Positions 3,568-33,327 of a DNA stretch of 33,327 bases are shown here, in pieces. Both the position numbers and the translations under genes were made by a program. The notes below the pieces were generated by a model. That model was not told the origin of the DNA. It did not search any database and saw only the letters and a program-made list of their open reading frames with translations. Within the stretch, counting starts at the first letter, position 1; each line of letters starts with the position of its first letter. Source of the stretch: a virus; IMG/VR virus record IMGVR_UViG_3300037042_001568, positions 1-33,327 of that record; one strand, written 5' to 3'.

Positions 3568-4286
3568 TTGTTAAGGTAATACCGTCAAAGGTTGCTAATG
3601 AGTTTGTAAAGAAACATCATTATAGCGGTAAGGTTGTGCCAAATTCAACTTTACATTTTGGTTGCTTTTTAGATGATAAGTTGCATGGGGTATTAAGTTA
3701 CGGACCAAGTATTAATAAAAAAGGCACAATAAATTTAGTTCAAGGTACAGGTTGGAATGAATTTATTGAACTTAATAGGATGGCTTTTGATGACTATTTG
3801 CCAAAATATAGTGAAAGCAGGTGTATTGCTATAAGCATTAAATTAATAAAAAAAAATGCACCACAAATAAAATGGATAATAAGTTTTGCAGATGGTACAC
3901 AATGTGGTGATGGTACTATATATAGAGCAAGTGGATTTAATTTAGTTGGTATTGCAATAAGTGGGCAAGTTTTTGATTTTAATGGTGAAATAGTACATGG
4001 AAAAATATTGTGGGATAAAAGTCTAGTAAAAGGTTGGACTGTTTCAGATGATTGTATGAACAAATTAAGAGCAAAAGGTCATAAAATTGAAAGATTAAAT
4101 GGGTTTCAATTTAAATACATATATTTTATAGATAAACAAAAAATAACTGATTTAACAGTTCCAATACTTCCATTCAGCAAAATAGATGAAATGGGTGCGG
4201 GAATGTATAAAGGGAAAAAAATAACCCTCCAAGAAAGGAAGGTTATTAATAAGAGCGGTGCAATAGATTCGAACTTTACTTCTTAA
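3546..4286 (+). CDS. Mom-like DNA adenine-modification protein
   Basis: The 246-aa product resembles the Mom family of phage Mu, a GNAT-fold protein that converts adenine to a methylcarbamoyl-type derivative and protects phage DNA from restriction. Visible features: VANEFVKKHHYSGKVV near residues 16-31, WNEFIELNRMAFDDYLPK around 70-87, and WIISFADGTQCGDGTIYRAS around 109-128. Length is close to that of Mu Mom. It overlaps the ParB-like gene and together they look like a DNA-modification pair. Codons are visibly more AT-rich than those of the flanking genes, suggesting separate acquisition. Its last 33 bases overlap a tRNA-like gene on the opposite strand, so the C-terminus (KSGAIDSNFTS) may be a non-native extension. 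Confidence 0.75.
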   Translation: MGRAKEIIVKVIPSKVANEFVKKHHYSGKVVPNSTLHFGCFLDDKLHGVLSYGPSINKKGTINLVQGTGWNEFIELNRMAFDDYLPKYSESRCIAISIKLIKKNAPQIKWIISFADGTQCGDGTIYRASGFNLVGIAISGQVFDFNGEIVHGKILWDKSLVKGWTVSDDCMNKLRAKGHKIERLNGFQFKYIYFIDKQKITDLTVPILPFSKIDEMGAGMYKGKKITLQERKVINKSGAIDSNFTS

Positions 4287-4324
4287 CTGGAATGTTAAGC
4301 GTGCGACCATTACACTAACACCGC
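4254..4324 (-). tRNA. tRNA-Gly(UCC)-like gene with unusual anticodon arm
   Basis: Read on the minus strand from 4324, a 71-base cloverleaf forms: acceptor GCGGTGT with GCACCGC (one T-G pair), D arm GTG-TAATGGTCG-CAC, anticodon arm CTTAA with TTAAG, T-loop TTCGAAT and discriminator T, which is the bacterial glycine type. TCC after a T gives a glycine UCC anticodon. Oddities: the anticodon loop is eight bases (CATTCCAG), or six if the C-G closes; the variable region is only three bases; and the T stem has two mismatches in five. No CCA is encoded. It lies opposite to all surrounding genes and overlaps the end of the Mom-like gene. It may be functional, decayed or a remnant. Confidence 0.6.
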
Positions 4325-29223: not shown

Positions 29224-29231
29224 TATATTTG
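29224..29231 (+). promoter_or_regulatory. -7 box before HNH leader (no clear -33)
   Basis: TATATTTG, an exact TAnnTTTG, at 29224-29231. No TTTG or TTG was found at a good distance upstream, so the promoter is incomplete. Transcription from it would begin near 29237, just before the structured leader. Confidence 0.4.
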
Positions 29232-29242
29232 CTCAACTCTTT

Positions 29243-29343
29243 TGCACGAAGTGGAATTCAACAAAAGATTTTTAAAAACAGCTTAATCGGGCGACTAGTA
29301 TAAAGGTATTTCCACACCTGTGCAGCTAGTCCCCGAAGCGGCT
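29243..29343 (+). ncRNA. HNH-associated structured leader, pseudoknot (copy 1)
   Basis: Two interleaved helices form. Helix 1: TGCAC (29243-29247) plus GTGGAA (29251-29256) pair with TTCCAC (29310-29315) plus GTGCA (29320-29324), separated by an internal loop. Helix 2: AGCT (29280-29283), TCGGG (29287-29291) and GACTAG (29293-29298) pair with CTAGTC (29326-29331), CCCGA (29332-29336) and GGCT (29340-29343). The order 1a-2a-1b-2b is an H-type pseudoknot. Helix 2 ends 12 bases before the HNH ATG at 29356. The same order, loop sequence and tail are found upstream of the HNH gene at 32255. Confidence 0.6.
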
Positions 29344-29355
29344 TATTTATATATT

Positions 29356-29718
29356 ATGCAAAAAAAATTAAACTGCAAATTTGTAGAAGGTACTGATAAA
29401 AAGTATAGAGTTTGTGACAATGGAATTGTTATATCATTAATGCAAAAGAAAGCTAGAATACTTAGACATGAAGTGCGAAGCGATGGATATTTACAAGTAT
29501 CTATATCATTTAAGAAAGATGTTAAAATGAAATCATTGCATAGATTAGTAGCAGAAGCGTTTATAGAAAATAATGAAAATAAGGAGACGGTTAACCATAA
29601 GGATGGTGATAAAACAAATAATTGTGTTTCAAATTTAGAATGGAACACAAGAAGCGAAAACATACAGCACTCTGTTCATGTTTTAAAAAATCAACACGGA
29701 AAAAGAAAAAAACAATAA
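29356..29718 (+). CDS. HNH endonuclease, NUMOD4-HNH_3 type
   Basis: The 120-aa product starts MQKKLNCKFV, with KKYRVCDNGIVISLMQKKAR as the NUMOD4-like strand region and the HNH_3 core: SLHRLVAEAFI (H62), TVNHKDGDKTNNCVSNLEWN (H81, N93) and ENIQHS. These are free-standing homing-type nucleases that spread by cutting alleles lacking them. It sits alone between two unrelated early genes, and the leader upstream is structured. I chose ATG 29356 because the upstream frame runs through the leader structure. Confidence 0.8.
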   Translation: MQKKLNCKFVEGTDKKYRVCDNGIVISLMQKKARILRHEVRSDGYLQVSISFKKDVKMKSLHRLVAEAFIENNENKETVNHKDGDKTNNCVSNLEWNTRSENIQHSVHVLKNQHGKRKKQ

Positions 29719-29728
29719 AAAGAAATTT

Positions 29729-30586
29729 ATGGCAAGACCTAACAGAAATGATGTAGATTATTTTCCTTTATATTGTAAGGAGGGTAAGACAATGCACTTT
29801 ATCAGAAATAAATTTGGTAACGATGGATATGTTGTTTGGATAAGAACACTGAGAGCATTGGCGGTTAAAAACTACCATTACTTAGATTTTAATGATGAAA
29901 CGGAATTGTTATTTCACGCATCGGATTGTAATGTTGAACCTGATGTATTATTAGGTGTTTTAAATTGTCTTGCTAAATTTGGAGAAATAGATAGTGAATT
30001 TTGGGAATGTAACGTAGTTTGGAGTGAAAAATTTATTGATTCAATAAAAGACGCATATCGCAAACGGGCGGTAAAAATCCAGTTACGGGCGGATATACTC
30101 CGCCTATCTTCCGCCCTAAACCACATTTCTTCCGCCGAAAACGAGGTTTCTTCCGCCATTAATCCACAAAGAAAAGAAAAGAAAAGTAAAGAAGATTATA
30201 ACGAAAATAAATTTTCTGAAAAAATTATTGAATTAGGTAAATATGTTTTCAAAGATAAATTTTCAGTTGACAGAGCAATAACAACTTACTCAACTTCCTT
30301 AAACAACCTAAAAGAATCTTTTTTAAATTTCCTGATGTCGGAAAAATACCACGAAAAAGAATTGAATGAATTAGCGATGGATAAAATGAGTAAGCACTTT
30401 TTTAGATGGCTTTTAACACATCAGCCAAAGAAAGTCGAAAATAAATATGCTGATTTATTGCAAGGTGAATGGGGTGTAGATTTTCATTTGAAGCCAACAC
30501 CGAATGATAAGGAAGCTATACAAGAACTATTAAACGATGGCTGGGTAAGAACTAATGAAGGAATGGCTAAACGTATAAAAAAATAA
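29729..30586 (+). CDS. Replication initiator, Lin1244/DUF4373-like, with embedded iterons
   Basis: The 285-aa product begins MARPNRNDVDYFPLYCKEGK and FIRNKFGNDGYVVWIRTLRA, the start of the DUF4373 or Lin1244/Lin1753 replication-type domain (residues 1 to about 112), with YHYLDFNDETELLFHASD. The middle (about 113-147) encodes repeated seven-residue units of the pattern RA... and SSA..., each from a 21-bp DNA repeat. The C-terminal part is helical with KMSKHFFRWLLTHQPKK. Such proteins start replication of phages or plasmids, and the repeats inside the gene resemble the lambda O arrangement. It is followed by the helicase gene 2 bases later. Confidence 0.7.
   Translation: MARPNRNDVDYFPLYCKEGKTMHFIRNKFGNDGYVVWIRTLRALAVKNYHYLDFNDETELLFHASDCNVEPDVLLGVLNCLAKFGEIDSEFWECNVVWSEKFIDSIKDAYRKRAVKIQLRADILRLSSALNHISSAENEVSSAINPQRKEKKSKEDYNENKFSEKIIELGKYVFKDKFSVDRAITTYSTSLNNLKESFLNFLMSEKYHEKELNELAMDKMSKHFFRWLLTHQPKKVENKYADLLQGEWGVDFHLKPTPNDKEAIQELLNDGWVRTNEGMAKRIKK
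30065..30169 (+). repeat. Five 21-bp iteron units within the initiator gene, probable origin
   Basis: Five consecutive units of 21 bases start at 30065, 30086, 30107, 30128 and 30149. The first two carry CGGGCGG; the last three carry TCTTCCGCC, whose CCGCC is the reverse complement of the GGCGG in the first two. The units are aligned with codons. An A-rich stretch (AAAGAAAAG repeats, then AT-rich DNA to about 30235) follows and could be an unwinding region. Confidence 0.7.
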
Positions 30587-30588
30587 AT

Positions 30589-31569
30589 ATGAGCGTAAAA
30601 AATTATTTCTGTGAGCCAAGCGAGGCAATAGATATGCTCGATAACATTCGAGAAGGCAGAGTTAAGTTAGGGTTAGGTATTGGAGACGAACTATCTGATA
30701 ATCATTTGAGATATAAACAAGGGCAGTTCGTAATGGTGAATGGCGCAGACAATACGGGCAAGACTACTTGGATTCTTTGGTACTTCGTTGTCCTGGCACT
30801 TAAACACAAAATTACATTTGACATTTATTCTGCCGAGAATTCAATAGCATCATTGAAGCGCGATATAATGCAGTTCATGACCGGTAAGACATTGAACAAG
30901 CTAACGGATTTAGAATACCGAAGAGCCTTTGATGAAATGAATCATTACTTTAAATTTATTCGCAATGATATTATTTACAACATCAAAGAACTATTGGCAA
31001 TAAGCGCGCAGAGTGATAGCAAGTGTTTACTAATTGACCCTTGGAATAGTTTGAAAGGTAGTGGAGGCAATAAGCACGAAGAAGATTATGAAGCCTGTGG
31101 AGAGATTCGCGTATTTTGTAACACAAAGAAAAAGAGCGTTTATGTTAATGCTCACTTGGTAACTGAGGCAGCCCGTAAGAAGTACGCTAAAGACCACGAA
31201 TACGAAGGGCATCAAATGCCACCAAGTAAAAGTGATACGGAGGGAGGGCAAAAGTTTGCCAACAGATGCGATGACTTTATTACCATTCACCGTATGACAC
31301 AATTCGAGGCACGTAAGAACTTTACAGAGATTCACGTAAGGAAGGTTAAGGAAACTATTACGGGCGGTTCAGTTACTCCATTAGACAGACCATTGATATT
31401 CAAGATGTGGAATTTCACGAGGTTTGAAATCGGGGAGGGTAACCCAATAGCCAACGAAACAGGACAAGGCACACCGGTACAACAAACACTAACAACTTTA
31501 AACCACGCAAAAAATGAAAAATTTGAAACTGAGAGCGTTCAAAAAGATGCAGACGATTTCCCGTTCTAA
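30589..31569 (+). CDS. DnaB/RecA-fold replicative helicase or loader ATPase
   Basis: The 326-aa product has a RecA-fold NTPase core: Walker A GADNTGKTT (residues 52-60) after FVMVN, and Walker B CLLIDPWN (146-153). Downstream are AHLVTEAARKKYAKDHEYEG and PPSKSDTEGGQKFANRCDDF (substrate sensing region). It lacks a DnaB-type N-terminal domain, so it is a short phage helicase or DnaB-like ATPase. It follows the initiator gene by 2 bases, as expected for replication partners. The next gene overlaps its end. Confidence 0.75.
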   Translation: MSVKNYFCEPSEAIDMLDNIREGRVKLGLGIGDELSDNHLRYKQGQFVMVNGADNTGKTTWILWYFVVLALKHKITFDIYSAENSIASLKRDIMQFMTGKTLNKLTDLEYRRAFDEMNHYFKFIRNDIIYNIKELLAISAQSDSKCLLIDPWNSLKGSGGNKHEEDYEACGEIRVFCNTKKKSVYVNAHLVTEAARKKYAKDHEYEGHQMPPSKSDTEGGQKFANRCDDFITIHRMTQFEARKNFTEIHVRKVKETITGGSVTPLDRPLIFKMWNFTRFEIGEGNPIANETGQGTPVQQTLTTLNHAKNEKFETESVQKDADDFPF

Positions 31570-31921
31570 GATAGCAGCCGAACGAGAAACCGATAGCCTA
31601 AACGATTTATTTAAAGACGAAATAATGATAGATTTATCATTCGACTTGGCACTTTGCGAAATGATGGCGAAAAAATCAGCTGGTGCGAAAAAGAATAATT
31701 GGGAAAATATGGCTTTGCGAATTGAAGGATATAAAACTTACATTGAGAAAATTCATTTGAAGGCTAAAAGAGAGTATCTAATAAACGATTTAAAGCCAAG
31801 TGATATAATTACACTACTCGATAAAAATAAGCGATTAGAAAGGCTTAATTTAAGTTTGATGAAACAGAATGATAATTTAAAAACGCAAATTGATAACTAT
31901 GTCGCAAAATTTGGATTATAA
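31514..31921 (+). CDS. Unknown 135-aa helical protein
   Basis: Not recognised. The frame begins at ATG 31514 inside the helicase gene; a second start at 31547 would reduce the overlap to 23 bases. The product is helical, with coiled-coil character at the end (LLDKNKRLERLNLSLMKQND). It overlaps the next gene at 31899. Regulation presumably follows the early operon. Confidence 0.5.
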   Translation: MKNLKLRAFKKMQTISRSKIAAERETDSLNDLFKDEIMIDLSFDLALCEMMAKKSAGAKKNNWENMALRIEGYKTYIEKIHLKAKREYLINDLKPSDIITLLDKNKRLERLNLSLMKQNDNLKTQIDNYVAKFGL

Positions 31922-32111
31922 CGATAAGGTGTGGGGACTGCTTATTTCAATGAATGTGGGTGATGAATTTAATATAATTGAGAAGGTTGCACCTGAGAGA
32001 AGGCAAAAGTTTATTGAGATAGTTAAAAGTTATATTGACCACGATTGTAGTGATTTAACTTATATTGAATTTAACAACGAATACACGAAAATTAAAAAAT
32101 ATTTAAAATAA
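31899..32111 (+). CDS. Unknown 70-aa protein (complete copy)
   Basis: Starts at ATG 31899 (MSQNLDYNDKVWGLLISMNV), overlapping the end of the previous gene; a TTG nine bases upstream is less likely. The C-terminal 40 residues match the truncated gene at 1-124 except for one substitution. Contains VAPERRQKFIEIVKSYIDHD, a helical segment. No domain recognised. Confidence 0.6.
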   Translation: MSQNLDYNDKVWGLLISMNVGDEFNIIEKVAPERRQKFIEIVKSYIDHDCSDLTYIEFNNEYTKIKKYLK

Positions 32112-32122
32112 TCTTGGAAAAG

Positions 32123-32153
32123 TTTGGTACTTAAAAAACAATTACTAATTTAG
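32123..32153 (+). promoter_or_regulatory. Promoter of the HNH cassette
   Basis: TTTG at 32123-32126, 19 bases, then TAATTTAG at 32146-32153 (one mismatch to TAnnTTTG). Transcription would begin near 32159, at the first base of the pseudoknot. The -33 box is shared with the other allele (136-139), while the rest belongs to the cassette. Confidence 0.55.
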
Positions 32154-32157
32154 CCAC

Positions 32158-32243
32158 GCAGTCCGAAATGAAAAATATTAAAAACATAGCCGTTACATTG
32201 CCTTTGGGGTTTCACCTCTTCGGACTGCCTTTGTAACGGCTGT
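32158..32243 (+). ncRNA. HNH-associated structured leader, pseudoknot (copy 2)
   Basis: Helix 1: GCAGTCCGAA (32158-32167) pairs with TTCGGACTGC (32219-32228), ten perfect pairs. Helix 2: AGCCGTTACA (32188-32197) pairs with TGTAACGGCT (32232-32241), ten perfect pairs, extendable by a wobble and an A-T pair to 32186 and 32243. A small hairpin, GGGGT-TTC-ACCTC (32206-32218), sits between 2a and 1b. The order 1a-2a-1b-2b makes an H-type pseudoknot ending 13 bases before the HNH ATG at 32255. Confidence 0.75.
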
Positions 32244-32254
32244 ATTTTATATTT

Positions 32255-32695
32255 ATGGCACACCTAAATATTGATGAAAGAAGAAAAGCTGTTGAAGAAG
32301 TTATTAAAACTGGATTCAATGTTAAAAAACTAAAAGAAATAGCGATTAAGTATGGTTGTAGTTACACAGCTTGCCGTAGCGACTTTGCTTATTTGCAAAA
32401 CAAAACCGGAATAACTTTATATCCTTGCCCATCAGTAAAAGAAAATGTAAGGAAAAGAGATAATAATACTTGTCAGTATTGCGGTGAAGTTGGAGGAGAA
32501 ATTATAATAGAACACGTAATACCATATATTTATGGGGGATTAGGAAAGGAATATAACTTAGTTTGCGCTTGTCAAGTTTGCAATACAAAGAAAAAGAAAA
32601 AGGTATGGATACCTAAAAATATTGATGTATTAATTTCAATCAATAAAGAATGGAGTGATAAAATATTAAACCACGAAAAACTAACCAAGTATTAA
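32255..32695 (+). CDS. HNH endonuclease, CxxC type
   Basis: The 146-aa product has an N-terminal helix-turn-helix-like region ([20 protein letters not shown], residues 21-40) and a C-terminal HNH domain: C73 and C76 in NTCQYCGE, H87 in IIEHVIPY, N101 in YNLV, and C106 and C109 in CQVCN. It lies in a cassette that replaces 140-573 of the other allele, and its stop codon TAA is at the right boundary. Free-standing phage HNH nucleases of this kind can be mobile. Confidence 0.8.
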
Positions 32696-32714
32696 TCAAA
32701 AACAAGCAAACTAT

Positions 32715-33327
32715 ATGGAAATTAAAAACATCTACGGAGCGGTAATTTATACCAGCGAAAAAGAAACAATGAGAGAAGCTGTTATCGAGGCGAACTTGAA
32801 AGGGGCGTACTTGGAAGGGGCGTACTTGGAAGGGGCGAACTTGGAAGGGGCGTACTTGAAAGGGGCGAACTTGGAAGGGGCGTACTTGAAAGGGGCGAAC
32901 TTGAAAGAGGCGAACTTGAAAGGGGCGTACTTGGAAGGGGCGTACTTGGAAGGGGCGAACTTGGAAGGGGCGAACTTGGAAGGGGCGAACTTGAAAGGGG
33001 CGAACTTGAAAGGGGCGAACTTGAAAGGGGCGAACTTGGAAGAGGCGAACTTGGAAGAGGCGAACTTGAAAGAGGCGAACTTGAAAGAGGCGAACTTGGA
33101 AGGGGCGAACTTGGAAGGGGCGAACTTGCCTATTTACTGTAAATGGAGTGTTTTTATCGTAGTTGATAAAATAAAAATAGGATGCAAAGAAAAGACAATC
33201 GAAGAATGGGAAGAGTGGTTTAAGTCCAGTGAAGAGTTTTCAACTAAAAGAGGTACTCCCGAATTTAAAAGAATAGAAGGAATGTTTAATGCTTACGCGG
33301 CTTACTATAAAACTGTAAACGATGGAA
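32715..33327 (+). CDS. Pentapeptide-repeat protein, intact allele (3' truncated by window end)
   Basis: From ATG 32715 the frame is open to the last base, giving at least 204 residues: head [19 protein letters not shown]..., 22 full A(N/Y)L(K/E)(G/E) repeats, then [20 protein letters not shown] and an acidic helical tail. The stop would lie just beyond the window, judged from 1245-1247 in the other copy. Unlike that copy, no 11-base deletion is present. The repeats fold as a pentapeptide beta-helix; function unknown. Confidence 0.85.
32790..33128 (+). repeat. 15-bp tandem repeat array (pentapeptide coding), allele B
   Basis: Twenty-two complete 15-base units plus a partial one of the same form as 682-1054. 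Here no D codons (GAC) are used and five units end in GAG in place of GGG. Repeat number and order differ from the other allele, as expected for fast change by slippage or recombination. Confidence 0.9.
33201..33327 (+). repeat. 127-bp perfect direct repeat, right copy (contig-end overlap)
   Basis: Identical to 1116-1242 and running exactly to the window end. See the left copy for interpretation as a circular closure overlap. Confidence 0.9.

What the first reader, a model, noticed from the sequence alone, without database searches (positions are those of the whole stretch)
29232..29355. A second HNH leader with the same pseudoknot layout and related sequence
The unrelated HNH gene at 29356 also has a leader whose helices are arranged 1a-2a-1b-2b, with 1b and 2b one base apart. 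The first loop shares TTAAAAACA-AGC with the other leader (TTAAAAACAT-AGC), and the tail after helix 2 is nearly the same (CGGCTTATTTATATATTATG versus CGGCTGTATTTTATATTTATG). The helices themselves have different sequences but the same order, which is what a conserved RNA with compensatory changes looks like. Two independent HNH types carrying it suggests an RNA that associates with mobile nucleases.
Basis: partly seen in the sequence, partly recalled or inferred. Interest (0 to 1): 0.85.

Follow-up and report, generated by a model that had tools for sequence, protein, structure and literature searches.

The report
Phage replication-operon leader with knotted RNA
The stretch before this HNH gene is the start of a phage messenger RNA that folds into an intricate, evolutionarily maintained knot; in related phages the knot sits in front of the DNA-replication gene, so it belongs to that gene's operon and the HNH gene is a later insertion, not its partner.

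Summary
The leader at 29237-29343 is a real structured RNA, but not an HNH-associated one. A covariance model built from ten relatives, without the window, finds the window copy at 72.5 bits (E 2.6e-11). Fourteen distinct leaders share six helices: a 5'-terminal hairpin (P0), a long helix (P2/P4), a small hairpin (P3), and two pseudoknots (P1, K2) joining P0's loop to P3's loop and 3' flank. 98% of base-pair cells are standard, and 21 of 34 pairs show two-sided compensatory changes (shuffle maximum 18). In every relative contig spanning the region the RNA starts six bases after a flavobacterial -7 promoter box and precedes the replication-initiation gene, directly or behind one small ORF. Only the window has an HNH gene there, inserted between leader and replication gene. 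None of 82 loci with other HNH genes carries the RNA. The 'other' HNH leader (32158-32241) is also a strong 5'-terminal pseudoknot with compensatory changes and occurs only with its HNH gene, but the model does not recognise it (4.4 bits), so homology is unproven. No Rfam family matches. Most likely it is a cis-acting 5' cap or operator of the replication operon; that mechanism is inferred. Shown: structure, promoter linkage, context.

The parts
29224..29231 (+). -7 promoter box TATATTTG (flavobacterial sigmaA consensus TAnnTTTG); predicted transcription start about 29236
   Evidence: Sequence; aligned upstream regions; consensus and its -12 to -5 position from PMC9723704. Exactly 6 bases separate box and P0 in all aligned leaders (some lineages have TAnnTTAG).
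29237..29343 (+). structured leader RNA (whole element)
   Evidence: 72.5 bits, E=2.6e-11 with model R1, which did not contain this copy
29238..29268 (+). P0 5'-terminal hairpin, arms 29238-29243 and 29263-29268; its loop holds P1a and K2a
   Evidence: 5 bp in relatives, UCUUA/UAAGA to UCUUUU/AAAAGA double change
29244..29323 (+). P1 pseudoknot helix, 29244-29247 GCAC with 29320-29323 GTGC
   Evidence: 3 of 4 pairs with two-sided changes
29251..29315 (+). K2 kissing helix, 29251-29256 GTGGAA with 29310-29315 TTCCAC in the P3 loop
   Evidence: 6 of 7 pairs with two-sided changes
29288..29335 (+). P2 helix, 29288-29291 + 29293-29298 with 29326-29335 (one bulged base)
   Evidence: 8 of 10 pairs with two-sided changes
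29304..29319 (+). P3 hairpin, 29304-29307 with 29316-29319
   Evidence: 100% paired, UA/AU/GC variation in its innermost pair
29280..29343 (+). P4 helix, 29280-29283 with 29340-29343
   Evidence: 100% paired, 2 of 4 pairs with two-sided changes
29344..29355 (+). AU-rich unstructured start region before the first ORF
   Evidence: Sequence; a similar AU-rich stretch follows P4 in the relatives
29356..29718 (+). HNH_3 endonuclease gene, inserted between leader and replication gene
   Evidence: Pfam HNH_3, PHROG 59/959; absent at this site in all relatives
29729..30586 (+). replication initiation gene (Lin1244_N domain), the usual owner of the leader; in L086 the same N-terminal allele follows the leader directly
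   Evidence: Pfam PF14297, PHROG 2562 replication initiation, L086
32146..32153 (+). -7-like box TAATTTAG of the second leader (the TAnnTTAG form also seen in L107 and L111)
   Evidence: Sequence. Predicted +1 (32158) is the first base of its helix 1.
32158..32241 (+). second 5'-terminal pseudoknot leader: P1 32158-32167/32219-32228, P2 32188-32197/32232-32241, P3 32206-32210/32214-32218
   Evidence: 0/300 shuffles; all 6 differences to L083 within it fall in stems and keep pairing, including two double-changed pairs in P3
32255..32695 (+). second HNH endonuclease gene (PF01844), found with the leader above in all three phages that have it

Best explanation
The element is the promoter-linked 5'-terminal leader RNA of a flavobacterial-type phage's replication operon. 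Transcription is predicted to start about 2 bases before the first helix. The RNA folds into a compact six-helix structure in which one continuous 3' strand (K2b-P3b-P1b-P2b) pairs end to end with four separate upstream segments, giving two interlocked pseudoknots, and is followed by an unstructured AU-rich start region. It acts in cis on the mRNA it heads, most likely as a 5' cap or operator that protects the transcript's 5' end and sets how much replication protein is made, perhaps modulated by a bound phage protein as T4 gene 32's leader pseudoknot is. The HNH gene in this window is a free-standing endonuclease gene that landed between leader and replication gene and uses the leader. Shown: structure, strand, promoter-box linkage, operon context, HNH as an insert. 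Inferred: actual transcription start, cis action, stability/translation role, any regulator.
For: Blind detection of the window copy and of L089, L102, L107, none of them in the seed, and of L241/L247/L253 by a promoter/P0 pattern that ignores the other stems, then 94 bits. Covariation including both pseudoknots: 96.4% paired, score 0.538 versus 0.173 +/- 0.017 shuffled and at most 0.09 slid; with 14 leaders and hand-fixed registers 467/475 cells, 21 pairs and 89 cells double-changed versus shuffle maxima 18 and 38. G-U 13 versus A-C 2 marks the + strand. Constant 6-base spacing from the -7 box to P0 although upstream genes differ (consensus from PMC9723704). One copy per genome, always ahead of the replication gene. 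The leader runs into an ORF in every case.
Against: No expression data. The first gene behind the leader varies (small ORFs, several unrelated initiator N-termini, HNH), which argues against a specific contact with the first gene's product and leaves no obvious regulator. A trans-acting RNA or a role at the replication origin is not excluded. The start codon is not occluded by the fold, so simple start-site masking is unlikely.
Confidence: 0.65

Rival explanations
1. One reading: an RNA that associates and moves with HNH nucleases (a guide or regulatory RNA of the nuclease, in the manner of HEARO/omega RNA).
For: Two different HNH genes in one phage have pseudoknotted leaders; the second leader is found with its HNH gene in 3 of 3 phages.
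Against: The RNA of this finding precedes replication genes, not HNH genes, in all relatives; no match in 82 other HNH loci; the two leaders are not recognisably homologous; the HNH proteins are small, 120 and 146 aa, with only an HNH domain.
Confidence: 0.05
2. Trans-acting noncoding RNA or an antisense-controlled copy-number leader, as in plasmids of the ColIb-P9 (RepZ) or ColE1 kind, where kissing loops set replication frequency; rapidly changing stem sequences would be incompatibility types.
For: The leader is placed before a replication initiator; stems differ between phages whose flanking genes are 86-98% identical; a kissing helix K2 is central; iteron-like repeats lie inside the initiator gene downstream.
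Against: No antisense promoter or terminator was identified; leader alleles do not track initiator alleles; these are tailed phages, not plasmids.
Confidence: 0.12
3. Self-cleaving ribozyme or ligand-sensing riboswitch in the leader.
For: Compact, doubly pseudoknotted fold with invariant unpaired bases in the P0-P4 linker and the P2/P4 internal loop.
Against: No match to any of 4227 Rfam families, ribozymes and riboswitches included; helix order resembles HDV ribozymes only partly; downstream genes share no metabolic theme.
Confidence: 0.08
4. The structure works at the DNA level, as a folded single strand at the replication origin.
For: Located next to replication genes.
Against: Fixed position relative to a promoter -7 box, G-U pairs preferred over A-C (13:2), the element directly precedes a start region; the iteron-like repeats are elsewhere, inside the initiator gene.
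Confidence: 0.05

Closest known systems
T4/T2/RB69 gene 32 leader pseudoknot (autogenous translational operator; PMC3014915)
   Same: A pseudoknot at the 5' end of a phage replication mRNA leader, followed by an unstructured AU-rich stretch over the start region.
   Different: T4's is a small two-helix pseudoknot bound by its own SSB; here six helices with a kissing loop, ahead of an initiator and helicase operon; no binding protein known.
RNA structures before homing endonuclease genes (I-TevI, Aeh1 mobE, T4 segB; PMC3014915)
   Same: Structured RNA in front of a phage endonuclease gene.
   Different: Those reduce translation initiation by sequestering the start region; here the fold ends 12 bases before the start codon, and the RNA precedes replication genes in the relatives.
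HEARO / IscB omega RNA
   Same: A structured RNA upstream of an HNH gene.
   Different: No Rfam match, much shorter, HNH protein of 120 aa without the further domains of IscB, and no linkage to HNH in relatives.
HDV-like ribozymes
   Same: Order P1a-P2a-P3-P1b-P2b with P3 between 2a and 1b (from general knowledge).
   Different: No Rfam hit; no P4 hairpin between P1b and P2b; extra 5' hairpin and kissing helix; long linker between P1a and P2a.

Membership tests
HEARO / omega RNA of IscB | Matches the family's Rfam covariance model | tested here: not met
   No Rfam 15 match at gathering threshold; none relevant up to E=10
HEARO / omega RNA of IscB | Adjacent gene encodes a large RuvC+HNH protein | tested here: not met
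   120 aa with HNH_3 only
HEARO / omega RNA of IscB | RNA and nuclease gene co-occur | tested here: not met
   RNA without HNH in all relatives; HNH without RNA in 82 loci
HDV-like ribozyme | Rfam model match | tested here: not met
HDV-like ribozyme | Self-cleavage at the 5' side of P1 | not testable with these tools
   needs in vitro transcription
T4 gene 32-type autogenous operator | Pseudoknot near the mRNA 5' end followed by AU-rich start region | tested here: met
   sequence 29344-29355
T4 gene 32-type autogenous operator | Leader of the ssDNA-binding protein that binds it | tested here: not met
   Downstream genes are replication initiation and helicase proteins; no SSB found immediately behind. 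Binding by another protein was not testable.
Start-site-masking leader of homing endonucleases | Start codon or ribosome site paired in the RNA | tested here: not met
   P4 ends at 29343, ATG at 29356; AU-rich between
Structured 5' UTR RNA (candidate cis-regulatory motif) | Covarying structure between a promoter and an ORF on the same strand, conserved across genomes | tested here: met

The most novel reading that the evidence does not exclude
A new RNA fold class: a promoter-coupled, 5'-terminal structure with a kissing loop and interlocked pseudoknots that serves phages of SD-less flavobacteria as an mRNA cap or switch for the replication operon, with a second, separately evolved 5'-terminal pseudoknot on an HNH cassette of the same phage pointing to a general strategy of knotted 5' ends.
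Probability: 0.35. Interest if true: 0.75.

Novelty: new variant of a known kind. Interest (0 to 1): 0.6.

Why it matters
It is a covariation-supported, multiply pseudoknotted RNA with no Rfam counterpart, sitting at the predicted 5' end of the replication mRNA of a phage group whose hosts appear to be flavobacteria (the nearest isolates by helicase similarity are Cellulophaga and Maribacter phages). Such hosts lack Shine-Dalgarno sequences (PMC6847099), so how their phages control translation and mRNA life is open; this gives a concrete, mutable element to test. It also corrects the tempting reading that a pseudoknot before an HNH gene is a nuclease RNA.

Tried and rejected
BLASTN of both leaders against isolate phages: only chance hits. 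Rfam at gathering and at E<=10: nothing relevant. Single-sequence folding (z -2.7, z -2.1) and two-helix shuffle test: not decisive for this leader. Model against the second leader with filters off: 4.4 bits, so homology not claimed. Search for the operon in bacterial genomes with helicase and terminase alignments: no relative, so no prophage or named host. Survey of Bacteroidota genomes not possible because no genome handle was available. Distant relatives L148-L150 (helicase 46%) have no leader. The alternative helix GCTT/AAGC next to P2 was rejected: relatives show P4 as AGCT/GGCT, AACC/GGTT or AGCAT/ATGCT across an internal loop. Literature search for HNH plus pseudoknot leaders: nothing that fits.

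Full report
Observation. The leader is present. By itself it is weak: a two-helix pseudoknot as good arises in 54 of 300 shuffles, and its plain fold has z -2.7. The sister leader at 32158-32241 is strong alone (0 of 300 shuffles; top of 2214 tiles of the window).

Relatives. The neighbouring genes 29729-30586 and 31514-31921 were used to fetch related viral contigs, and the window's features were mapped on them. The leader has about 72% identical counterparts, but behind them stands the replication-initiation gene (L086, L090, L106, L109, L111) or a small ORF followed by that gene (L087, L088, L091, L092, L100, L101, L104). The HNH gene is at this place only in the window. L086 has the same N-terminal allele of the replication gene directly after its leader, so the HNH gene lies exactly between leader tail and replication start codon in the window.

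Structure. A covariance model was built from ten relatives without the window. It finds the window at 72.5 bits and, also outside the seed, L089, L093 and L102 at 59 bits and L107 at 52. One strong copy per record is found, on the operon's strand, and every contig that reaches upstream of the replication gene has it. On the 14-row alignment, 34 pairs including the two pseudoknots are 96.4% standard; 21 pairs have changes on both sides; the covariation score is 0.538 against 0.173 +/- 0.017 in shuffles and at most 0.09 for slid partners. The pseudoknot helices are well supported on their own: P1 3 of 4 pairs, K2 6 of 7. A pattern made only of the promoter box and P0 arms then pulled out L241, L247 and L253, whose P1 (GCUG/CAGC), K2 (GGUCUAA/UUAGACC) and P2 (GCAAGU/ACUUGC) are all complementary. 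With this leader and hand-fixed registers, 467 of 475 cells pair; 5 of the 8 exceptions are a register shift in L111. G-U outnumbers A-C 13 to 2, so the + strand is the functional one.

Promoter. All leaders begin 6 bases after TAnnTTTG (TAnnTTAG in L107, L111 and L241) although the genes upstream differ. This is the flavobacterial sigmaA -7 box, at -12 to -5 of the start (PMC9723704), so the RNA is predicted to start 2 bases before P0. In the second leader the same arithmetic puts +1 on the first base of its helix 1. Both are therefore probably 5'-terminal structures.

HNH link. Model R1 finds nothing in 82 loci, nearly all fetched through HNH relatives. For the second leader, leader and HNH gene occur together in window, L082 and L083, and the site holds other cassettes or nothing (L099) in other phages; all six changes in L083's leader RNA keep its helices. 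R1 gives it 4.4 bits, so common origin is not shown. The shared A-rich linker and tail could be inheritance or convergence.

Mechanism. The fold leaves the start region free and lies at the predicted 5' end of an operon mRNA. Precedents are the T4 gene 32 leader pseudoknot (PMC3014915) and 5'-terminal stems that slow mRNA decay (general knowledge, e.g. the ompA leader). Because the leader is kept while the first gene changes, a general effect on the transcript's 5' end is favoured over recognition by the first gene's product. Bacteroidetes mRNAs lack SD sequences and translation is tuned by mRNA structure and a few key bases before the start (PMC6847099), consistent with a fold that stops short of it. 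This step is inference.

Limits. All relatives are metagenomic contigs of one phage group; no isolate or host genome with the RNA was found.

Noticed in passing
30064-30162: Iteron-like direct repeats at 21-base spacing inside the replication gene (GGGCGG x2, TTTCTTCCGCC x3); other alleles have their own repeats (GGTCATATG in L106). Possibly the replication origin, exchanged together with the initiator's N-terminal part.
   Followed up: partly
29729-30586 and relatives L086-L112: The initiator's N-terminal half is replaced by unrelated sequences between close relatives while the C-terminal half is conserved: a modular swap site just behind the leader.
   Followed up: partly
32112-32700: Site between gene 31890-32111 and the gene homologous to 1237-1509 is a cassette site: HNH, a methyltransferase-like protein, a Gly/Asp/Ser repeat protein and small ORFs in different phages, empty in L099.
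   Followed up: partly
596-1057 and 32716-33180: Two pentapeptide-repeat genes with the same N-terminus ([14 protein letters not shown]) lie near both ends of the window.
   Followed up: no
4253-4324 (-): ARAGORN reports a tRNA without a readable anticodon that overlaps the end of a coding region; probably a false hit.
   Followed up: no
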